In this document: positions 40,759 to 52,490 of the stretch, one piece after another
Layout: every line of letters begins with the position of its first letter
Position numbering within the stretch: position 1 is the stretch's first letter
Assembly (NCBI RefSeq): GCF_003258315.1
Contig: NZ_CP030032.1
Coordinates: 3,660,501-3,724,500, forward strand
Length of the DNA: 64,000 nucleotides
Reading direction: 5' to 3'
From: Bradymonas sediminis
Lineage (GTDB): Bacteria; Myxococcota_A; Bradymonadia; Bradymonadales; Bradymonadaceae
Program-made: the position numbers and the translations under genes
Notes under the pieces: model-generated
Databases searched by the model: none
What the model was told of the DNA's origin: nothing
What the model saw: the letters and a program-made list of their open reading frames with translations, nothing else

Positions 40759-41036
40759 CACTTTCGTCCCGGTCACATTTATATACGCAATATTCTACAA
40801 ATTTCGCGGCGAATCGATGCATATCAACCCGCCCTTCCCCTTACTCCGGTGAACCGCTTTACGCGAGAATCATTCCACGACGCCAACCGCTTGTGACCTT
40901 GCCCATACGATGCACCGGCCGCTCCCTATCCTTCACATATCACCATCGAACCCGCCAGTTGCACAAGCGCGCGTCCCCTACTATTAGATCGGGGCAGAAA
41001 TACGCAAATTATTCCCCCTCCCGAGACGAGCAAAAG

Positions 41037-44000
41037 ATGAGCGGCAGCTACAAAAAAGCAGGTCAAATCGCCAGCGAACCGATCGCGCTTAAAAACCACG
41101 TGCGTTTTGTCACCGCCGCGAGCCTCTTCGACGGCCACGACGCCGCGATCAACGTGATGCGCCGCATCATCCAGGACAGCGGCGCCGAGGTCATCCACCT
41201 CGGGCATAACCGCTCGGTGGTCGATATCGTCGAGGCGGCGATCCAGGAGGACGCGCAGGGCATCGCGATTTCGAGCTATCAGGGCGGTCATATCGAATTC
41301 TTCAAATATATGCACGACCTGCTCGAAGAGCGCGGCGCCGGGCATATCCAGATCTTCGCCGGCGGCGGCGGCGTCATCGTCCCCGAAGAGATCAAAGAGC
41401 TCGAAGACTACGGAATCGTAAAGATTTTCAGCCCCGATGACGGCCGCTCGATGGGCCTGCAGGGCATGATCAATTTTATGCTCGAGAAGACCGATTATGA
41501 TGTCACCGAGCAGGGTTCGACGCCGAGCGCGGAGCTGATCGCCCAGAAGAATACGCTCGCCATCAGCCGGGCGATTAGCTTTGCCGAGCACGCGAAATTC
41601 GACGCGCTCGCGCTGCCCAAACCGACAAACCCCGCCCCGGTGGTCGGCATCACGGGCACCGGCGGCGCCGGCAAATCGAGCCTCACCGACGAGTTCGTGC
41701 GCCGCTATGTGCATGATTTCGAAGACAAAACCGTCGCGATTATCTCCATCGACCCGACCCGGCGCCGCAGCGGCGGCGCCCTTTTGGGCGACCGCATCCG
41801 CATGAACTCGCTGACGCCCGAGCGCACGTTTATGCGCTCGATGGCCACCCGCCAGAGCAAGGGTGAGCTGGCCGCGGCCATCGACGAGGCGGTCCATATC
41901 GCCCAATGCGCGGGCTTCGACCTCATCGTCGTCGAGACCAGCGGCATCGGCCAGGGCGACGCCGATATCGTCGACCACTGCGACCACTCGATCTACGTGA
42001 TGACCAGCGAATTCGGGGCGAGCAGCCAGCTCGAGAAGATCGATATGCTGGACCTGTCGGACTTCGTCGTCATCAATAAATACGAGAAGGCCGGCAGCCT
42101 GGACTCGCTGCGCGCGGTGCGAAAACAGGTGCGCCGAAACCGCAAATTATGGGACGCCGAGGACGATGACCTGCCCGTATTTGCCACCATCGCCAGCCAA
42201 TTCGGCGACAGCGGCGTCACCGCCCTTTATCAGGCGGTGATCAAGAAGGCGTTCGGCGAAGTGCCCCCGTCGAAATGGAAGGCCGACGGACCGGTCACCC
42301 AAAAACAAAACGAGATCATCCCGCCGGCCCGCGAGCGCTACCTGGCCGAGCTCGCCGAGACCTGCCGCGACTACCGCGCCCAGGTCGAGGCCCAGGCCGA
42401 GCTTGCCAGCCGCCTCTACCGCATCGAGGGCGCGCGCGCCGAGTTGGCCGACGCGGACGCCGACGATTTGACCCAGGCTCTGGAGGCGCGCCACACCGCC
42501 ATCGAGGCCGACCTCACCCGCGAAACCCAGAAGCTCCTGGAGGGTTGGGAAGACCTCAAAGCGGCCTATGACGGCGACGAGACGATCATCGAAATCCGCG
42601 GCAAAGGCGTCCCCTTTGAGCTGGTGACCGAGTCGCTCTCGGGCACCAAGATCCGCAAGGTCGCGCTGCCTAAATACCGCGATTGGGGCGACCAGATCCG
42701 CTGGCAGATGCTCGAAAACGTCCCGGGACGCTTCCCCTACACCGCCGGCGTCTTCCCCTTTAAGCGCGTCGACGAGCACCCCGCGCGCATGTTCGCCGGC
42801 GAGGGCACGCCCGAGCGCACCAACCAGCGCTTCCATTATTTGAGCCAGGGCGAGAAGGCCAAGCGCCTGTCCACCGCGTTTGACTCGGTGACGCTCTACG
42901 GCGAGGACCCGGCGCTTCGCCCCGATATCTACGGCAAGATCGGCAACTCAGGGGTGAGCATCTGCTCGCTCGACGATATGAAAAAGCTGTACGCAGGCTT
43001 TGATTTGGCCGACCCCTACACCAGCGTGTCGATGACGATTAACGGCCCCGCGCCGATCATCCTGGCGATGTTTTTGAACACCGCCATCGACCAGCAGGTC
43101 GAGGCCTACCGCACAGAAAATGGGCATGTGCCCGAGGGCGAAGCCTACGAAAAACTCTACGACGACACGCTTCGCGCAGTGCGCGGCACCGTGCAGGCCG
43201 ACATCCTCAAAGAGGACCAGGCCCAGAATACCTGCATCTTCTCGACCGACTTCGCGCTGAAGATGATGGGCGATATCCAGGCGTATTTTATCGACAAAAA
43301 GGTGCGCAATTATTATTCGGTCTCGATCAGCGGCTATCATATCGCCGAGGCCGGCGCGAACCCGATCACCCAGCTCGCCTTCACGCTGGCCAACGGCTTT
43401 ACCTACGTCGAATATTATCTGTCACGCGGCATGCATATCGACGACTTCGCCCCGAACCTGTCGTTCTTTTTCTCCAACGGTATGGACCCCGAATACACGG
43501 TGCTCGGGCGCGTCGCCCGGCGCATCTGGTCGGTCGTGATGCGCGAGAAATACGGCGCAAACGCGCGCTCGCAGCGGCTCAAATACCATATCCAGACCTC
43601 CGGGCGCTCCCTGCACGCCCAGGAAGTTCAGTTCAACGATATCCGCACCACCCTGCAGGCGCTCCTCGCCCTCTTCGACAATTGCAATAGCCTGCACACC
43701 AACGCCTATGACGAGGCCATCACCACGCCCACCGAGGCGAGCGTGCGCCGCGCCCTGGCCATCCAGCTCATCATCAATAAGGAGTTCGGCCTGGCCAAAA
43801 ACGAGAACCCCAATCAGGGCTCGTTTATCGTCGAGGAGCTCACCGACCTGGTCGAAGAGGCGGTGCTCCAGGAGTTCGAGAATATCAGCAACCGCGGCGG
43901 CGTCCTCGGCGCGATGGAGCGCCAATACCAGCGCAGCCAGATCCAAGAAGAGTCGATCTATTACGAGCGCAAAAAGCACTCGGGCGCCCTGCCGATCATC

Positions 44001-44279
44001 GGCGTGAACACCTTCTTGTCCGACGCCGACGAGGACGAGCACGACCTGGAGCTTATCCGCTCCACCGAAGCCGAAAAGAAGGCCCAGATCGCCAACCTCG
44101 CCGCGTTCCAGCAGGCCCGCGCCGACCAGGCCGAAGCCGCGCTCGAGCGGCTCAAGCAGGCCGCGCTCAACCACGGCAATATTTTTGCTGAGTTGATGCA
44201 CACGGTGCGCTACGCGAGCCTTGGGCAGATCACCCACGCGCTTTATGAGGTGGGTGGGCAGTATCGGCGGGCGATGTGA
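41037..44279 (+). CDS. icmF: Fused isobutyryl-CoA mutase IcmF
   Basis: 1080 residues from the ATG at 41037; an upstream GTG-type frame from 40893 is not protein-like. Domains: B12-binding (1-150) with the axial-ligand motif LFDGHDAA (His34), then a MeaB-type GTPase (about 200-480) with Walker A GTGGAGKS (207-214) and a distal NKYEKAG, then the mutase barrel (about 530-1050) with [11 protein letters not shown], whose Phe is typical of IcmF rather than methylmalonyl-CoA mutase, and [14 protein letters not shown]. It interconverts isobutyryl- and butyryl-CoA using adenosylcobalamin. Length and order match known IcmF proteins. The gene stands alone. Confidence 0.96.
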
Positions 44280-44414: not shown

Positions 44415-45887
44415 ATGACTCAAGAAAACCCCACATACGATCTCTATATTGAACCACTGTTGGCTCTACTTGCCGAATACCCGTCAGGGCTCAAAACATC
44501 GCAAATCTACGAAGACCTCGCCACACGCATGAGCCTTTCGCAGGCGCAACGCGCCGCCCTACTGCCCAGTGGTACCCAACCGGTCTATCACAACCGAATT
44601 GGCTGGGCGCACGACCGCCTAAAGCGCGCGGGGCTTTCGCGGAGCATCAAACGCGGCACCTGGGCGTTGACTCAACGCGGCAGGGCGGCTGCCGAACTAT
44701 ACGCCGCCGGAATGCCGGCCGAACTCCATCAGGCGATTGCCAGGCCACGAGATAAAGGCGTCCCGGATGAATTAATCAAGCTCGACCCATATGAGTTTGA
44801 CGGCGGCGAAATGCTCCCGCCAAACCTCGAGGTACAAATTGACGCGTTCGACGCTGAGACATTCACCGCAGTCGAAGCCGCCAAAATCGTGCTCGCCGAG
44901 GTCGACGGGCCGCTCCATTATGGCGAAATTACCCGGCGTATATTGGAGCGCGGCTTGTGGACGACCAGCGGCGCCACGCCCGATGCCACCATCGGCGCGA
45001 AGCTAGCCGTGGACATCAAAAACAAAGGCGACGCGTCGGATTTTATACGAATAAAACCGGGCATTTATGACCTAAATCGAGACGGGCTCGAGACTGCATC
45101 AGAGGCCGAAATCGAGTGTATCCCCGAAGACCCAGACACGTCAGCACCTGAATATATATCGACGCTTGAGCCGCTGTCCTTTACCGACGCCGCCGAGCGC
45201 ATCCTGCAGGTCTTCGCCGAGCGCGAGCCGATGCATTACGCAGAGATCACGGACCGCGCGCTCGATCTGGGGCTGCTCGTTAGCGAGAGCAAAAACCCGT
45301 CGACCACCCTCAACGCGTCCATCCTTCAGGAGACCAAACGACGCAAAGAGCGCGGCGACACGCAGCGCTTTGAGATGCTCGGCGACGGCATGATCGGGCT
45401 TACACGGTGGAACCAGACCGGGCTGACCGCCTATATTGAGGCTCACAACGAAAGCGTACGTCGCAGGCTTCACGAGCAACTTCACGAGATGGACCCCACC
45501 GAGTTTGAGGAGTTAGCCGGGCAATTGCTCGTCGCGCTCGGGTTCACCGACGTGGCCGTCACGACGCGTCATAACGACGGCGGAATCGATGTGCGTGGCA
45601 CCCTGGTCGTCGGCGATGTCATTCGCACCAAGATGGCCGTCCAGGTCAAACGCTGGAAGAGCAATATTCAAACGCCCATCGTCCAACAGGTCCGCGGAAG
45701 CCTTGGCTCTCATGAGCAAGGCCTGATCATCACCACCAGCGACTTTAGCGCGGGTGCCCGCGCAGAGGCCGAGCGCTCCGACGCCGTGCCGGTCGGGCTG
45801 ATGGACGGTCAGCAATTGGTGCGGCTGCTCGTCGAATATGGTCTGGGCGTCGAGAAGGACGCGTTGAATCTGCTGCGCCTTAGTTAA
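44415..45887 (+). CDS. Mrr-type restriction endonuclease with two HARE-HTH domains
   Basis: 490 residues. Residues about 8-95 are an Mrr N-terminal winged helix (YHNRIGWAHDRLKRAGL, RGTWALTQRGR). Residues 151-222 (TAVEAAKIVLAEVDGPLHYG to KPGIYDLN) and 254-331 (SFTDAAERILQVFAEREPMH onward) are two HARE-HTH modules, predicted to sense DNA modification. Residues 359-480 are the Mrr catalytic domain, with Glu363/365, Asp392 in GGIDVRG and the QVK motif at 410-412. It probably cuts DNA bearing modified bases (type IV restriction). No partner methylase is nearby, consistent with type IV. AAGGA precedes the start. Confidence 0.9.
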   Translation: MTQENPTYDLYIEPLLALLAEYPSGLKTSQIYEDLATRMSLSQAQRAALLPSGTQPVYHNRIGWAHDRLKRAGLSRSIKRGTWALTQRGRAAAELYAAGMPAELHQAIARPRDKGVPDELIKLDPYEFDGGEMLPPNLEVQIDAFDAETFTAVEAAKIVLAEVDGPLHYGEITRRILERGLWTTSGATPDATIGAKLAVDIKNKGDASDFIRIKPGIYDLNRDGLETASEAEIECIPEDPDTSAPEYISTLEPLSFTDAAERILQVFAEREPMHYAEITDRALDLGLLVSESKNPSTTLNASILQETKRRKERGDTQRFEMLGDGMIGLTRWNQTGLTAYIEAHNESVRRRLHEQLHEMDPTEFEELAGQLLVALGFTDVAVTTRHNDGGIDVRGTLVVGDVIRTKMAVQVKRWKSNIQTPIVQQVRGSLGSHEQGLIITTSDFSAGARAEAERSDAVPVGLMDGQQLVRLLVEYGLGVEKDALNLLRLS

Positions 45888-45953
45888 GCTGGGCGCCTCG
45901 CGCAGGCCGCCCCCCTCGACGATCACTCCCATACCGCGTCTGACCCGCCCTCA

Positions 45954-46118
45954 CCCCTCAAAAAACGTCGGCCTTAGCCTAAAATCGAGGGCTATCGCCT
46001 CAAAAACCGGCCCTTTGCCCCATTTTTTGAGCCCCAAGCCCTCAAAAATCGTCACTGTCGACGCAAATTTGTCGGGCCAAGCCCTCAAAAATGAGGCAGG
46101 TGGCTCATTTTTGAGGGC
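45954..46118. repeat. Cluster of CCTCAAAAA words with a 15-bp hairpin
   Basis: Copies on the plus strand begin at about 45955, 45998, 46039 and 46082; reverse copies lie near 46024-46031 and 46108-46117. The last pair forms GCCCTCAAAAATGAG (46081-46095), loop GCAGGTGG, and the perfect complement to 46118. The spacing is irregular, so it is not a CRISPR. No U-tract follows. Confidence 0.75.
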
Positions 46119-46232
46119 AAAGGCCTTCTAAGTTACGGTTGAGGTTCCGAATTTGTCGGGCGCAGCCCTCCCGGCGCGGGGTGCCGGGCGGGTGCATCAG
46201 GCCGAGAGCCCGGACTCCTTCGTTTGCGCCGC

Positions 46233-46283
46233 TCGCACCAACGACAAAACGCCCCGCCCCATTCGATGGGGCGGGGCGTTTTT
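46233..46283. terminator. Terminator-like hairpin, copy 1
   Basis: CGCCCCGCCCCAT-TCG-ATGGGGCGGGGCG followed by TTTTT on the plus strand, and preceded by TCGCACCAACGACAAAA. The whole 47-bp stretch recurs at 46915-46961. The nearest plus-strand gene that it could terminate is the Mrr gene, about 360 bp upstream. Confidence 0.8.
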
Positions 46284-46443
46284 ATGTGCGCCTGGGCTTC
46301 AACCGCCCTGACCCACGTAATTTTAACAAAAATTTAACGCCATTCGCCTCCATACACACCGCTCCAATCCTTGCCACCCAAATAAACAGGTGACATTCTA
46401 AAGGCACATCTTTGTAAAATATTACTATGGACGGGAGCCACAC

Positions 46444-46914
46444 ATGGCGAAGAGAACGTATGCGTTTCTATTCTTGCTATTCTTTGTATTTGCTTGCGGC
46501 GATGACGCGCCAAGCGCGAAAGAAGAAATCGATTCTAGTTTAGCCGATCTAGAAGAGAGCAGCGAAGAGTACAGCAAGGAGTTTTGTGTTTGCTATGCAG
46601 ATATTACCAATAATGGCGATATGAACCAGTGTATCATGGAGCAAGGGACCACCAACCCGCTCCCCACGGCATGTGAGCGCGATGTTGCCGAGTGCTATGC
46701 CGAAGATTATACCGTATTTATCCGCTGCGCCACGAACGCGATCGACGAGTTTCGCCGCTGCATCTCCTCATGCCCAACCTCCAGCTCTCAGATCGACAGT
46801 TGCGTCAACACGCTCAACATGCGCCAGTCGACCTGCGACAAAAATTTACCGGCGGATGTGAAAATCCATATGGATGCGTGTACTTCCGGTCAAAAATTCA
46901 CCTGCGATAACTAA
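46444..46914 (+). CDS. Cysteine-rich lipoprotein
   Basis: 156 residues. A short signal peptide ends in a lipobox-like FVFAC, followed by GDDAPSAKEE and a Ser/Glu-rich helix. The rest contains about 12 cysteines in pairs (FCVCYADI, CERDVAECYAEDYTVFIRC, CISSCPTSSSQIDSCVN, STCDKN, MDACTSGQKFTC), probably all in disulfides. It is a single gene with GGGAG before its ATG, flanked by two copies of the same 47-bp terminator element. The lower GC in its 5' third differs from its neighbours. Function unknown; probably exposed on the cell surface. Confidence 0.8.
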   Translation: MAKRTYAFLFLLFFVFACGDDAPSAKEEIDSSLADLEESSEEYSKEFCVCYADITNNGDMNQCIMEQGTTNPLPTACERDVAECYAEDYTVFIRCATNAIDEFRRCISSCPTSSSQIDSCVNTLNMRQSTCDKNLPADVKIHMDACTSGQKFTCDN

Positions 46915-46961
46915 TCGCACCAACGACAAAATGCCCCGCCCCATTCGATGGGGCGGGGCGT
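46915..46961. terminator. Terminator-like hairpin, copy 2 (bidirectional)
   Basis: GCCCCGCCCCAT-TCG-ATGGGGCGGGGC, part of a 47-bp direct repeat of 46233-46279 with one clear mismatch. In the minus direction it is followed by AUUUUG, so it probably ends the sulfur operon (stop at 46989) as well as the lipoprotein gene. Confidence 0.82.
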
Positions 46962-46988
46962 CTGTGTGTCAGCTTCCGAACAATACTC

Positions 46989-47864
46989 TCACTCCGCCGA
47001 TGCCGGCATCGCCTCGGCCTGGCCGCGGGCGGCCAGGCGGCGCACGCTGAGCACCACAAAGACCACGACCGTGGCCGCAAACCCGCTGCGGATCATCGGG
47101 GCGCCGAGCTGCTCGCCGAGGATCAACGTGCCGGCGATGAGCACGAAATAGGCGAAGCCGATGCGCAGACGGCTGGCGTCGATGCGTTTGTTGACCTCGG
47201 CGCCCACAAACGAGCCGATGATGGAGGCGACCAGGAAGGCGACCGCCAACTTATAGTCGATGGTGACGTGGCTGATATGGCCGAGGAAGCCGGCGTAGGA
47301 GTTCATCGTGACGACCAGCAGGGAGGTGCCGATGGCGCGGCGGATCGGCAGGCCGGCGACGACGACCAGGGTCGGCACGACGATAAATCCGCCGCCTGCG
47401 CCGACCAATCCGGTCAGAAGGCCGACGCCAATCCCCAGCGGGATGAGCTTTCGAAACGGGACGCGCCTCGGCTTGGGGGCGTCGTGGGTGACCGCGGCGG
47501 CGGCGGGGGTTTTGCGCCCCCGAAGCATCATCACCGCGGCGAGCAACATGATCAGCGAGAAGCCGGCGAGCAACATTTCACCGGGGAAGAGGCTGGCGAG
47601 GTTGCCGCCCACGAAGGCGCCTGCCATGGCGCAGATGCCGAAGACCACCCCGGCCCGCCAGGCCACATTGCCGGCGCGCGCGTGCGAGACCACCGCGACC
47701 GCGCTGGTCGTCCCGATGACGAAGAGGCTCGTCGCGATGGCCGACTTTTCGCTGAGTTCGACCAGATAGACCAGGGTCGGCACGGCCATAATCGAGCCGC
47801 CCCCGCCCAACAAACCCACGACAAAACCCACGATGAGCGCTGCGATGATTGCGATCGTCGACAT
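46989..47864 (-). CDS. TauE/SafE-family sulfite or sulfur-oxyanion exporter, paralogue 1
   Basis: 291 residues with about eight transmembrane helices in the two-fold repeat typical of TauE/SafE: IVGFVVGLLGGGGSIMAVPT in the first half and VGLLTGLVGAGGGFIVVPTL in the second, each with the conserved glycine-rich loop. It probably exports sulfite or another sulfur compound. It is the last gene of the six-gene operon starting at 51233 and is a paralogue of the first gene (shared LVGAGGGF(I/V)(V/I)P and YFVLIAGTLILGEQL). The gap of 133 bp from the DsrE gene is the longest in the operon. Confidence 0.92.
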   Translation of the reverse strand: MSTIAIIAALIVGFVVGLLGGGGSIMAVPTLVYLVELSEKSAIATSLFVIGTTSAVAVVSHARAGNVAWRAGVVFGICAMAGAFVGGNLASLFPGEMLLAGFSLIMLLAAVMMLRGRKTPAAAAVTHDAPKPRRVPFRKLIPLGIGVGLLTGLVGAGGGFIVVPTLVVVAGLPIRRAIGTSLLVVTMNSYAGFLGHISHVTIDYKLAVAFLVASIIGSFVGAEVNKRIDASRLRIGFAYFVLIAGTLILGEQLGAPMIRSGFAATVVVFVVLSVRRLAARGQAEAMPASAE

Positions 47865-47997
47865 GCGATTTCCGGCAAGAAAAACACGATACCAGGCGTC
47901 GACGACCTCGCGCGCGCTGCGCGAAGTCGCCGGGTCGAACGCCTGATTTTAGATGCTGCGATTCAGAGGTGATGAGGAGGAGACGCGGGCGCCTGAC

Positions 47998-48480
47998 TCA
48001 GAGCACTACCGCCTCGTAACCCGCCGCCTGGAGACGGGCAAGCTCGATAAACCCGTTGGGGACCACCTCGACGCTCGGGGCGAGCGCGGCGGGGTCGATA
48101 TTCATGGCCTCCAGGGTGATGCCGCAGGCGACCACGCGCACGTCGCCCTCTTTTTCGGTGCGCTCGATCTCGGCCTGAATATCGGTGTCGGCGAGCAAAA
48201 ACTCCACCGCCGGACCGCAGACCACGATCGTGACCTGGTCGGCCTGGTAGCCGCCGACTCCCTGGAACATCTGGCGCGCGGTGAGCAGGCCGACCTGCAG
48301 GTGGCGCTCGGTGCGCACCCCGATGGCGGCCTTATGGGGTTGCTCGGCTTGCTGCGCGTTGGCGCCGAGCGCCTGCGGCTGCGACTCGGCGCCCGCCGTC
48401 GCGCAGCCCGAGGCGAGCGCGGTCAGACCGACCAGTAAAATCATCAGCGACAGCAGCTTCTTCGTCGTACTCAACAACAT
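47998..48480 (-). CDS. DsrE-family lipoprotein
   Basis: 160 residues from the ATG at 48480 (GGAG upstream); the longer open frame lies over the neighbouring hydrolase gene and is not real. The signal peptide ends in the lipobox ALASGC. A DsrE-like alpha/beta domain follows: DQVTIVVCGPAVEFLL, VRVVACGITLEAMNID with the conserved Cys, and a closing EVVPNGFIELARLQAAGYE. DsrE proteins normally carry sulfur on a Cys in the cytosol; this one should be periplasmic and lipid-anchored. Its place in the sulfur operon suggests sulfane-sulfur binding outside the cytoplasm (inference). Confidence 0.88.
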   Translation of the reverse strand: MLLSTTKKLLSLMILLVGLTALASGCATAGAESQPQALGANAQQAEQPHKAAIGVRTERHLQVGLLTARQMFQGVGGYQADQVTIVVCGPAVEFLLADTDIQAEIERTEKEGDVRVVACGITLEAMNIDPAALAPSVEVVPNGFIELARLQAAGYEAVVL

Positions 48481-48529
48481 ATTAGGCTCCGTAAAAGACA
48501 TGCTCCAAGAGACGCCCGGGCGTGGGGGC

Positions 48530-49429
48530 TCAGACCTCGTTAAGCTCGGTCTCGCCCTCGTCGCGGCTCGGCTTAAAGACGTTGACCGGGATGCGCAGGT
48601 AGCGCACTTCGTTGCCGCTGGGCTGCGGCAGATGCCCGGCGTCGACGTTGACCTGCACGCTCTGGAACAGCAGGCGCGGAGCCTCGAGACCGGCGTCGCG
48701 CTCGTCGCGGAATTTGATGAACTCCTCTTTGCTGCGCCCGGCCGGGATCTGAATATTATTGGCCTTTTGCTCGCCGATGGTCGTCTCCCACGCCAGCTCG
48801 CGCCCCCCGGGCTGATAGTCGTGGCCGACGAAGACGCGGGTGTCATCGGGCAGCGCGTAGAGCTTTTGCACCGACTCGTAGAGGTCGGCGGAGCTGCCGC
48901 CGGGGAAGTCGCAACGCCCGGTGCCCATATCGGGCATAAAGAGCGCGTCGCCGGTGAAGATCGCGTCCTCTACCTTATAGGTCACGCACGCCGGGGTGTG
49001 CCCCGGGGTGAAGATGGTCTCAATGGTGAGCGTTCCCACCTGGAGCGGCTCATCCTCATTGAGGAGCAGGTCGAATTGACGCCCGTCGGTGGGGAAATCA
49101 GCCGGCAGGTCGAAGACGTTTTTAAAGACCTTCTGCACCTCGGTGATGCGCTCGCCGACGGCGAGTTTCGCCTGCGGGAAGGCCTGTTGGACGATCTGCG
49201 AGCCCGACAGATGGTCGGCGTGGGCGTGGGTCTCCAGGATATATTGGAGCTTGAGGTCGTTGTCCTTGACGAAGGCGATCAGCGCGTCGGCCGACTCGGT
49301 CCAGGTCTTCGAGGACTTCGGCTCATAGTCGAGCACCGGGTCGATCACCACGGCGTCGCGGGTGTCGACGTCGTAGACAACATAGGAGAGCGTGGACGTA
49401 CGAGTGTCATAAAACGATTTAATTTCCAT
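48530..49429 (-). CDS. blh: MBL-fold persulfide-dioxygenase-like hydrolase (Blh/ETHE1 type)
   Basis: 299 residues, start with an excellent AGGAGGT. Metal ligands of the family are visible: [10 protein letters not shown] (HxHxDH, about 67-72), the GHTPACV His, [11 protein letters not shown] (Asp), and VGHDYQPGG (His). [11 protein letters not shown] corresponds to the Arg/Asp substrate region of ETHE1. These enzymes oxidise glutathione persulfide to sulfite in an iron-dependent reaction; Blh relatives occur with YeeE-type proteins and TauE exporters. Here sulfite produced could leave through the two TauE proteins. The C-terminal 50 residues ([16 protein letters not shown]) extend the usual fold. 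Confidence 0.92.
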
Positions 49430-49454
49430 GGTGCAACCTCCTAGTTTGGGTGGA

Positions 49455-49877
49455 TTATGACTTCTTCAACTGTTTATCGAAGGCCGTGAAGAGGAACATC
49501 CCTGCGGCCATGGCAATAACAAAAATAAACGCGGGCGCCTGCAATGAGACCAGCGAGGTGATCCCGGGGCCGGGGCAAAAGCCCGCGATACCCCAACCGA
49601 TGCCGAAGAGCGCGCCGCCGGTCACCAGTCGCCAGTCGATATCCTTGCTGGTGGGCAGGTGGAATTTCTCGGCAAAGAGCGGACGCTGGCGCTTAAAGAT
49701 GAAGCGAAAGAGCACCAGGTTGACCAGCACCGCGCCGCCCATGACAAAAGCGAGGCTGGGGTCCCAATTGCCAAAGAAGTCCAAAAACCCGATGACCTTG
49801 CTCGGCTGAGTCATGCCCGACAAGACCAGCCCGATGCCGAAGAGAATACCTGAAATTAACACGATAGAGCGGTTCAT
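49455..49877 (-). CDS. YeeE/YedE-type sulfur transporter half, second gene
   Basis: 140 residues from the ATG at 49877, preceded by GGAGGTG and overlapping the upstream stop as TAATG (translational coupling). Four hydrophobic helices; family motifs [20 protein letters not shown] and [16 protein letters not shown] with the conserved Cys of the pore-like loop. YeeE/YedE proteins import thiosulfate or sulfur species; this is the short DUF6691-type half. With the upstream half it makes a two-gene PmpAB-like pair. The direction of transport here is not known. Confidence 0.9.
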
Positions 49878-50305
49878 TATGCACCTCCAAGGAGCAGATT
49901 CATCACGAAGACGGTGATCGCGCCGGTGGCCATAAAGGACACCGTCGCGACCAGCGAGCGGGCCGAGAAGCGCGGCAGGCCGCACACGCCGTGGCCGCTG
50001 GTGCAGCCGCTGCCGAGGCGGGTGCCAAAGCCCACCAGCAGCCCGGCGAGCGCGACCATCCAGGGCGCGCGCTCCACCGTGATGGCGAAGGACTCGGGGG
50101 TAAAGAGCATCATGAACGCTCCGCCCACCAGGAGTCCGCCGATGAACAGCGCGCGCCAGCCGAACTCGCCTTTTTGGGGCTGAATCACCCCGTTGAAGAT
50201 CCCGCTGATGCCCGCGATGCGCCCGTTTGCGCCGAGCATAATCGCGGCGGACAGCCCGATGAGAATGCCCCCGATGGTTGATGCGAATGGCGTGAAGTTT
50301 TCCAT
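49877..50305 (-). CDS. YeeE/YedE-type sulfur transporter half, first gene
   Basis: 142 residues with four transmembrane helices. The family signature [19 protein letters not shown] holds the two conserved cysteines that relay sulfur through YeeE. The first helix, [20 protein letters not shown], is also typical. It pairs with the overlapping downstream half. Located 64 bp after the TauE paralogue 2 gene in the sigma-54-type operon. Confidence 0.93.
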
Positions 50306-50369
50306 AACTATTATCCTACTGCGTTGATATATAACGTGAATTCGTTGCGAAAGCGTTCGAGACTTGAGT

Positions 50370-51233
50370 TCAGGGTGTGGCCACCGATTTCTTGGCGGCG
50401 CGCCGGGTGCCTAAATAGCGCAGGCCGAAGGCGACCGCCGCGATCACCACGGCGAGTATCATATTGAGAATCAGAGGCGATTCGAGCTGCTCGCCGAGGA
50501 TGAGCGTGCCGGCGATGAGGACGAAATAGGCGAAGCCGGTGCGCAAGCGGGCGGCGTTGATGCGCTGGCTGACCGCCGCGCCGGCAAAAGTGCCGATGAC
50601 CGAGGCGACCGCGAAGCCGCCCGCCAGGAGGAAGTCGATCTCCACGTGACCGAGATAACCGGCGAAGCCTGCGAAAGATTTCAGCGCGATGATCGCCAGC
50701 GAGGTCCCAATGGCCAGGCGCATCGAAATGCCACCGAATATCACCAGGGCAGGCACGATGACAAACCCGCCACCGGCGCCGACAAGGCCGGACAAAAGCC
50801 CGACCGCCCCGCCCAGGGCGAGCAACTTCGCGGCCGAGACCCGGGGCTCGGCGCCCGGCTGGGCCGCGACCGGCACCTTCGCCCCGCCGCGAAGCATCAG
50901 CGTCGCCGACAGCAACATGATGGCCGCGAAGCCCCCGATCAACAACTGACCGGGGATCAATTTGGCAAAACTGCCGCCCAGGTAGGCGGCGGCCATCGCG
51001 GCGCCGCCGAAGATGCCGCCGGTGCGCCAGTCGACGTTGCCGGCGCGGGCGTGTGAGATCACGGCCCCCAGGCCGGTCGCGCCGACCACCAGGAGGCTGG
51101 TCGCGATGGCGACCTTATCCTCCAGACCGATTAAATACATCAGGATTGGCACCGCGAGGATCGAGCCGCCCCCGCCCAATAGGCCAAGTACGAATCCCAT
51201 CGCGAGCGCGGCGATGATTGCTGTGATTGTCAT
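50370..51233 (-). CDS. TauE/SafE-family exporter, paralogue 2
   Basis: 287 residues from the ATG at 51233, which has a strong AAGGAGAT. Eight helices in two halves: LAMGFVLGLLGGGGSILAVP and VGLLSGLVGAGGGFVIVPAL. First gene of the sulfur operon, about 50 nt downstream of the predicted sigma-54 start site. It is clearly paralogous to 46989-47864 but diverged throughout, so the duplication is not recent. Sulfite or related anion export is inferred from family and context. Confidence 0.92.
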   Translation of the reverse strand: MTITAIIAALAMGFVLGLLGGGGSILAVPILMYLIGLEDKVAIATSLLVVGATGLGAVISHARAGNVDWRTGGIFGGAAMAAAYLGGSFAKLIPGQLLIGGFAAIMLLSATLMLRGGAKVPVAAQPGAEPRVSAAKLLALGGAVGLLSGLVGAGGGFVIVPALVIFGGISMRLAIGTSLAIIALKSFAGFAGYLGHVEIDFLLAGGFAVASVIGTFAGAAVSQRINAARLRTGFAYFVLIAGTLILGEQLESPLILNMILAVVIAAVAFGLRYLGTRRAAKKSVATP

Positions 51234-51292
51234 AATATCTCCTTGGCAACGGTGCACCAAATAAGTCAATAGCTACTTCCGCCAGCCTATAG

Positions 51293-51518: not shown

Positions 51519-52490
51519 ATGCACTATCCTCCACAAACCGACGCGACCTCCTTTTATGGCATGCTCACCGTCTCCGAGAAGATGCTCGAGTTTTTTGAGC
51601 TCGTGCGGCGCGTGGCGCGCACAGATGCGCCGGCGCTGATCCGAGGGCAGACGGGCACCGGAAAAGAGTTGGTGGCCAGCGCGATTCAGCAGCTCAGCCA
51701 ACGGGCCGACAAGCCCTTCGAGGTGCTCAACTGCGCGACGCTGACCCGCGACCTGCTCGAGTCGCGGCTCTTCGGGCATAAGAAGGGGTCGTTTACCGGC
51801 GCGATTCGCGACCAGGAGGGACTCTTCGCGCGGGCCGACGGGGGGACGATCTTCTTGGATGAGATCGCCGAGGTCCCGCTGGATTTACAGGCGAAGCTGT
51901 TGCGGGTGCTCGAGGAGCGCACCTACACGCCGGTGGGTGGCACCGAATCGGTGAAGGTGGACATCCGGCTCATCTCGGCGACCCACGTGTCGCTGCGCGA
52001 GGCGGTCAATCAGGGGCGATTTCGCGAAGATCTTATGTACCGAATTCGGGTGGTGCCGCTCTTCTTGCCGCCGCTCAACGAGCGCGCGGGCGATATCGAG
52101 CTGTTGACCTGGCATTTTGTCGAGCGATTCTCCCGGGAGTCGGGCCGCGATATCACGGGCATCGAGGGCCCCGCGATGCGCGCGATCCTCGAGTATCCCT
52201 GGCCGGGCAATGTACGGGAGCTAAGAAATGTGGTGCGCCGCGCGCTGATTATTGGCAGCGGCCCGACGATTCAACTCAAAGACCTCACGCCCGAGCTGCG
52301 TGGGGAGACGGTGCCCGGAGACACCGAGCAGGAGGCGCCGGCGTTGACCGAGCGGCAGCTTGAATATCAGCGGCTGGTCGCCGCGCTGCAGGAGAGTGGC
52401 GGCAAAAAACAGGAGGCGGCCGCGCTGCTGGGCATCAGCCGCACGACCTTGTGGAGAAAGCTGCGGGAGCATGGGATCGCGCAGCCCTGA
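51519..52490 (+). CDS. Sigma-54-dependent activator, AAA+ plus Fis-type HTH
   Basis: 323 residues. An AAA+ domain starts almost at once: Walker A GQTGTGKE, the sigma-54 contact loop GHKKGSFTGA (GSFTGA rather than the usual GAFTGA), Walker B GGTIFLDEIAEV, arginine-finger region RFREDLMYRIRVV and WPGNVRELRNVVRRALI. A Fis-type helix-turn-helix ends the protein (KKQEAAALLGISRTTLWRKL). There is no N-terminal sensor of note (about 15 residues). Divergent from the sulfur operon with its sigma-54 promoter, so it is the likely regulator, comparable in context to FisR of sulfane-sulfur operons, which does have a sensor domain. Confidence 0.94.
   Translation: MHYPPQTDATSFYGMLTVSEKMLEFFELVRRVARTDAPALIRGQTGTGKELVASAIQQLSQRADKPFEVLNCATLTRDLLESRLFGHKKGSFTGAIRDQEGLFARADGGTIFLDEIAEVPLDLQAKLLRVLEERTYTPVGGTESVKVDIRLISATHVSLREAVNQGRFREDLMYRIRVVPLFLPPLNERAGDIELLTWHFVERFSRESGRDITGIEGPAMRAILEYPWPGNVRELRNVVRRALIIGSGPTIQLKDLTPELRGETVPGDTEQEAPALTERQLEYQRLVAALQESGGKKQEAAALLGISRTTLWRKLREHGIAQP

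What the first reader, a model, noticed from the sequence alone, without database searches (positions are those of the whole stretch)
44415..45887. Mrr restriction enzyme with two HARE-HTH modification-reader domains
The order Mrr-N, HARE-HTH, HARE-HTH, Mrr catalytic (Asp392, QVK 410-412) combines a nuclease with two copies of a domain predicted to read DNA modification or link with modified-base biology. Two readers could demand paired modified sites. It stands alone with no methyltransferase, next to a repeat-rich region. A candidate anti-phage system against hypermodified genomes.
Basis: partly seen in the sequence, partly recalled or inferred. Interest (0 to 1): 0.6.

Follow-up and report, generated by a model that had tools for sequence, protein, structure and literature searches.

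The report
Mrr-type restriction nuclease with HARE domains
The gene encodes an ordinary-looking but well-built bacterial DNA-cutting defence enzyme of the Mrr kind, with three DNA-binding winged-helix domains in front of an intact nuclease; it belongs to a widespread, mobile, already catalogued group, and what DNA mark (if any) it reads is still untested.

Summary
The 490-aa ORF at 44415-45887 (+) is Mrr_N, HARE-HTH, HARE-HTH, Mrr_cat, all above Pfam cut-offs. E365, D392 and Q410-V-K412 are invariant in 31 aligned proteins. A model gives four folded modules on flexible linkers; the nuclease resembles the modification-dependent enzymes MspJI and AspBHI. HARE-HARE-Mrr_cat is a broad family: archaea and about a dozen bacterial phyla, mostly 45-57% identity, mostly without Mrr_N. 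In the host family it is sporadic (4 of 21 genomes), at unrelated places, and absent behind icmF in relatives: an acquired gene. Relatives often sit in restriction operons, some sharing 4-bp overlaps with hsdM or a GmrSD_N gene. Best reading: a stand-alone type IV-like restriction nuclease. Modification reading by HARE, hypermodified phages as targets, and paired sites remain untested. Cytosine-C5 methyltransferases are absent here but present in the three closest carriers, so plain 5mC is not supported as a universal trigger. New member of a known kind. Side finding: a core, syntenic HARE protein with a dead Mrr domain, apparently domesticated.

The parts
44415..45887 (+). Whole gene: Mrr_N - HARE-HTH - HARE-HTH - Mrr_cat protein, 490 aa
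   Evidence: ORF and Pfam domains; orthologues at 63-71% identity
44436..44693 (+). Mrr_N winged helix, residues 8-93
   Evidence: Pfam PF14338 80.5 bits; model pLDDT mostly above 90; winged-helix matches such as Hel308, PadR, MarR, Z 9-10
44865..45074 (+). HARE-HTH 1, residues 151-220
   Evidence: Pfam PF05066; model matches linker histone H1, Z 8.6, rmsd 2.0 over 67, and B. subtilis RNA polymerase delta, Z 7.3
45174..45410 (+). HARE-HTH 2, about residues 254-332
   Evidence: second Pfam stretch; model; alignment with HARE 1; match to 8x6g_E from S. aureus RNA polymerase, Z 7.4
45480..45830 (+). Mrr_cat PD-(D/E)XK nuclease domain, residues 356-472
   Evidence: Pfam PF04471 94.1 bits; MspJI 4f0q Z 10.1 over 139 residues, AspBHI 4oc8 Z 9.9 over 134
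45504..45509 (+). F364-E365 of the catalytic motif
   Evidence: invariant in 31 aligned proteins
45588..45590 (+). catalytic Asp392 (DGGID motif)
   Evidence: invariant in 31 aligned proteins
45642..45650 (+). Q410-V411-K412 (QxK of the catalytic motif)
   Evidence: invariant in 31 aligned proteins
45947..46126 (.). Short degenerate repeat block behind the gene (CCTCAAAAA about every 42 nt) ending in an inverted repeat, probably terminator-like; not part of the enzyme

Best explanation
The gene is an acquired, stand-alone restriction endonuclease of the Mrr (type IV-like) kind. Three winged-helix domains (Mrr_N, HARE 1, HARE 2) hold the protein on DNA and decide which DNA is treated as foreign; the C-terminal Mrr_cat PD-(D/E)XK domain, tethered through HARE 2, then makes double-strand cuts, probably after two protomers meet. 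Because no cognate methyltransferase is linked and the host survives, the winged helices most likely require something the host DNA lacks, with a base modification as the favoured candidate. Shown by sequence: domains, intact active site, mobility, family context. Inferred: DNA cleavage, defence, modification dependence, dimerisation. Not known: which modification and which sequence.
For: All four domains over Pfam cut-offs. Catalytic E365/D392/QVK invariant and the nuclease the best-conserved part of the shared family (median identity to relatives 0.71, against 0.48 and 0.46 for the HARE domains). PADLOC models of type IV enzymes (mREase_IV, 120.8 bits) and candidate defence gene PDC-S02 (135.3 bits) match. 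The nuclease fold is closest to MspJI and AspBHI, both modification-dependent. Sporadic in the host family, 4 of 21 genomes, in three unrelated neighbourhoods, while icmF in front of it is in all 21 and has no copy behind it in relatives whose flank is held. Orthologues or cousins in G013 and G016 lie among an N6/N4 methyltransferase, a DUF4435 AAA protein, GmrSD_N proteins and a type III-like restriction helicase. At least 13 of 40 distant loci have HsdM, GmrSD_N or Fic genes within four genes. EcoKMrr shares Mrr_N + Mrr_cat and attacks methylated DNA in vivo (PMC3874153).
Against: Nuclease kinship does not fix modification dependence: LlaGI has Mrr-like motifs but does not target methylated DNA (PMC3874153). 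Most relatives lack Mrr_N and several are coupled to methyltransferase operons, which fits an auxiliary nuclease as well. C5-methyltransferases occur in 21 of 37 carrier genomes, the three nearest orthologues included, so a general 5mC trigger is unlikely for the family. No background rate was computed for the defence neighbours.
Confidence: 0.6

Rival explanations
1. The HARE-HARE-Mrr_cat part is a portable nuclease used as auxiliary effector by other restriction systems (type I HsdM, GmrSD_N NTPases, Fic-linked operons). HARE domains bind DNA or a partner, not a modified base, and activity is licensed by the partner; here it would work with an unlinked type I system or on its own through Mrr_N.
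For: 4-bp start/stop overlap with hsdM upstream in L032, L053 and L060 and with GmrSD_N downstream in L031, L050 and L058; HsdM also near L025, L056 and L068; Fic in L027, L053, L055 and L060. The host has three strong HsdM/N6_Mtase genes elsewhere. Published surveys note HARE-REase genes as accessory nucleases of Dnd and BREX loci (PMC10853773, PMC12839542). HARE matches linker histone H1 and RNA polymerase delta, which are not known as modification readers.
Against: Here, in L046 and in other loci the gene is alone among housekeeping genes; the long form carries its own Mrr_N sensor; translational coupling does not show physical partnership.
Confidence: 0.25
2. The protein is a stress- or damage-responsive nuclease whose main role is not phage defence, as EcoKMrr cuts the chromosome under high pressure.
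For: EcoKMrr causes SOS under high pressure independent of methylation (PMC3874153); same N- and C-terminal domains.
Against: Sporadic presence and restriction-operon company of relatives fit defence better.
Confidence: 0.08
3. A recently acquired gene that is silent or decaying.
For: Single copy, no linked partner genes.
Against: Full-length ORF, intact and invariant active site, all four modules fold with good confidence.
Confidence: 0.07

Closest known systems
EcoKMrr and Mrr-type type IV restriction enzymes (e.g. Rv2528c, PMC11279042)
   Same: Mrr_N winged helix at the front and Mrr_cat nuclease at the back, no cognate methyltransferase linked
   Different: Two HARE-HTH domains and flexible linkers inserted between them; 490 aa against about 304 aa; modification dependence untested
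HARE-HTH - restriction endonuclease fusions (Aravind and Iyer 2012, as cited in PMC11037411, PMC10853773, PMC12839542)
   Same: HARE-HTH fused to a restriction nuclease; the Pfam family is named for this fusion; predicted modification reader
   Different: Two tandem HARE domains plus Mrr_N here; the 2012 paper is not held, so whether this exact order is drawn there could not be checked
MspJI / AspBHI family
   Same: Mrr_cat nuclease fold, Z about 10
   Different: They read 5mC with an SRA-like domain (PMC3874153); none was found here
PADLOC PDC-S02 (candidate single-gene phage defence)
   Same: C-terminal 155 residues match, 135.3 bits
   Different: Match covers the nuclease part only
DpnI-type and other wH-fusion 6mA-dependent enzymes (PMC11037411)
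   Same: Winged helix plus nuclease, mostly stand-alone
   Different: Different wH family; that paper treats HARE-HTH as a suggested reader only, more likely for cytosine marks

Membership tests
Mrr-type restriction endonuclease | Mrr_N domain over its curated cut-off | tested here: met
   80.5 bits against 29.5
Mrr-type restriction endonuclease | Mrr_cat domain with intact (D/E)...(D/E/Q)xK active site | tested here: met
   94.1 bits against 21; E365, D392, QVK invariant
Mrr-type restriction endonuclease | no cognate methyltransferase next to it | tested here: met
   ten flanking genes scanned, none
Type IV (modification-dependent) restriction system | cleaves modified but not unmodified DNA | not testable with these tools
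   needs biochemistry or transformation assays
Type IV (modification-dependent) restriction system | host and carrier genomes lack the methyltransferases that would make the target (tried for C5-cytosine) | tested here: inconclusive
   none in the host, but 21 of 37 carriers have one; host-family base rate 12 of 21; sequence context could still allow coexistence
HARE-HTH domain (PF05066) | two stretches, protein over the curated cut-off | tested here: met
   97.2 bits against 25.9, two stretches; models of both fold as winged helices
HARE-HTH domain (PF05066) | extra helix inserted in the winged-helix HTH | not tested
   feature quoted from PMC11037411; not measured on the model
MspJI family | SRA-like modified-cytosine reader | tested here: not met
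   no such Pfam match at E up to 10; N-terminal part is winged helices

The most novel reading that the evidence does not exclude
HARE-HARE-Mrr_cat is a portable nuclease cassette that plugs into type I, GmrSD_N and Fic-linked restriction operons across archaea and bacteria and is triggered by a partner or by DNA structure rather than by base modification; the window protein is a self-contained version that carries Mrr_N, while the same lineage keeps a domesticated dead version as a chromosomal protein.
Probability: 0.2. Interest if true: 0.5.

Novelty: new member of a known kind. Interest (0 to 1): 0.27.

Why it matters
In the papers held here HARE-HTH domains (also in human ASXL proteins) are suggested or predicted, not shown, to read modified DNA. 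A compact nuclease with two of them gives a direct cut/no-cut readout for that prediction. As a defence gene it is otherwise one more member of a catalogued group.

Tried and rejected
PDB sequence search: no chain at E up to 10. NCBIfam: no family. Phage and plasmid collections: no record with most of the protein; mainly separate Mrr_N or nuclease matches; two viral contigs carry the short form. 5mC as universal trigger: tested by methyltransferase co-occurrence, not supported. Shared synteny of the orthologues: rejected, three unrelated places. The repeats behind the gene as a dispersed or mobile element: the hairpin core occurs only twice in the genome, both here, and a CCTCAAAAA-type 20-mer has one other hit, not in an array. 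Tandem array: TRF none. Foldseek with the HARE pair gave no match under E 0.001, so the HARE fold rests on Pfam plus VIA-align Z 7-9.

Full report
WHAT IS THERE. The ORF at 44415-45887 (+) encodes 490 aa. Pfam places Mrr_N at 8-93, HARE-HTH in two stretches (151-220 and, from the model and alignment, about 254-332) and Mrr_cat at 356-472, every family well over its curated cut-off. The gene follows an icmF-type methylmalonyl-CoA mutase gene (40893-44279) and precedes a small lipoprotein-like ORF; none of ten scanned neighbours is a defence gene or methyltransferase.

STRUCTURE. AlphaFold2 with 30 rows gives mean pLDDT 80 but pTM 0.47: well-folded modules with unfixed mutual orientation, and low-confidence linkers at 119-146 and 226-248. 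The nuclease part matches MspJI (4f0q, Z 10.1, rmsd 3.7 over 139) and AspBHI (4oc8, Z 9.9, 3.6 over 134), two modification-dependent enzymes; the first 109 residues match winged-helix proteins. A separate model of the HARE pair matches linker histone H1 (5nl0, Z 8.6, 2.0 over 67), forkhead domains and the delta subunit of B. subtilis RNA polymerase (2m4k, Z 7.3, 2.9 over 70). These are DNA-binding or transcription folds; a shared fold shows no function, and nothing in the structure says that a modified base is read.

FAMILY. One scan of species genomes found 38 further loci, mostly 45-57% identical over HARE-HARE-Mrr_cat, in methanogenic archaea, Chloroflexota, Planctomycetota, Armatimonadota, Verrucomicrobiota and others. 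Most are about 330-390 aa and start at HARE 1; Mrr_N is present in the window protein, its three family-level orthologues, Oscillochloris (L023) and a Chloroflexota MAG (L047). In L047 the first HARE appears to be replaced by another winged helix of the Mrr_N type, and in L064 the second is replaced (read by eye): the winged helices look exchangeable while the nuclease is held (median identity 0.71, HARE 0.46-0.48). In the tree the window groups with G010 (98/94) and with G013/G016 (100/100), far from other phyla.

MOBILITY. In 21 genomes of the host family only four carry the full long form: the window genome, G010 (71%), G013 (67%), G016 (63%). Their neighbourhoods are unrelated except between the congeners G013 and G016. 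icmF is present in all 21, and none of the relatives whose downstream flank was held shows the nuclease gene behind it. So this is an accessory gene that arrived at this spot.

COMPANY. In G013/G016 the gene or its cousin lies near an N6/N4 methyltransferase, a DUF4435 AAA protein, GmrSD_N proteins and a type III-like restriction helicase. Among 40 distant loci at least 13 have HsdM, GmrSD_N or Fic within four genes (most of these Pfam-checked). Start/stop overlaps of 4 bp join the nuclease gene to hsdM in L032, L053 and L060 and to a GmrSD_N gene in L031, L050 and L058. Published surveys already list HARE-REase genes as accessory nucleases of Dnd and BREX loci (PMC10853773, PMC12839542), so the association with restriction is known in kind.

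TARGET. HARE-HTH has been proposed as reader of adenine or, more likely, cytosine marks, without proof in the papers held (PMC11037411). I tested one consequence. The host genome has no C5-cytosine methyltransferase and no D12-class adenine methyltransferase, but it has three strong HsdM-type genes and one N6/N4 methyltransferase. The absence of C5 enzymes does not generalise: 21 of 37 carriers have one, including all three near orthologues, about the base rate of the host family, 12 of 21. Plain 5mC in any context is therefore unlikely as the family trigger; a context-bound 5mC, 5hmC, another mark, or no mark remains possible. Dcm coexists with McrA, McrBC and Mrr in E. coli (PMC3874153), so the test cannot exclude context-bound 5mC.

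HOW IT LIKELY WORKS. Winged helices dock on DNA and license cutting by Mrr_cat; the foreignness signal is probably a modification, as for EcoKMrr. Steps shown: domains, intact active site, mobility, company. Steps inferred: cutting, dimerisation, defence, modification dependence. 'Two readers demand paired sites' has no evidence for or against; the pair is the usual state of the family, and the two HARE domains have diverged from each other.

SIDE FINDING. The same genome holds a second HARE protein (G000:C1:1392562-1394340, L076:6562-8340, 592 aa): a HARE domain, a long basic/Ser-rich low-complexity linker, a second winged-helix-like stretch and an Mrr_cat fold (52 bits) in which the catalytic Asp position is F/Y and the Lys position is T, V, M or similar in 12 aligned orthologues. 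It is in 20 of 21 family genomes; the exception is only 77% complete. It overlaps lipB by 4 bp in the window genome and keeps lipB and murA as neighbours in several relatives. More distant matches reach 39 of 57 genomes of the class, though many of those cover only the HARE part or only the C-terminal part. This looks like a restriction enzyme domesticated into a core chromosomal protein and may deserve its own study.

VERDICT. Observation confirmed; interpretation partly supported; new member of a known kind.

Noticed in passing
own genome G000:C1:1392562-1394340 (L076:6562-8340): Second HARE-HTH protein, 592 aa, with a basic/Ser-rich linker and an Mrr_cat fold whose catalytic Asp and Lys are lost in all 12 aligned orthologues; in 20 of 21 family genomes, near lipB and murA; a domesticated dead nuclease.
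   Followed up: partly
window 45947-46126: CCTCAAAAA repeated with ~42-nt spacing and a long inverted repeat just behind the gene; all five copies in the window are here; strong predicted fold.
   Followed up: partly
window 46233-46287 and 46915-46969: A 55-nt element with a perfect G+C-rich hairpin flanks the small ORF 46444-46914 on both sides (93% identical); its 27-nt core occurs only these two times in the genome.
   Followed up: partly
L031, L050, L058 (Methanoculleus and a Euryarchaeota MAG): HARE-HARE-Mrr_cat gene overlaps a downstream GmrSD_N (DUF262) gene by 4 bp: a possible two-gene system.
   Followed up: partly
L027, L053, L055, L060: Fic/DOC-family gene near the HARE nuclease, in L053 and L060 also with hsdM upstream.
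   Followed up: no
window 46989-51269: Cluster of two TauE/SafE permeases, a metallo-beta-lactamase-fold protein and DUF6691, followed by a sigma-54 activator at 51519-52490, probably sulfur handling.
   Followed up: no
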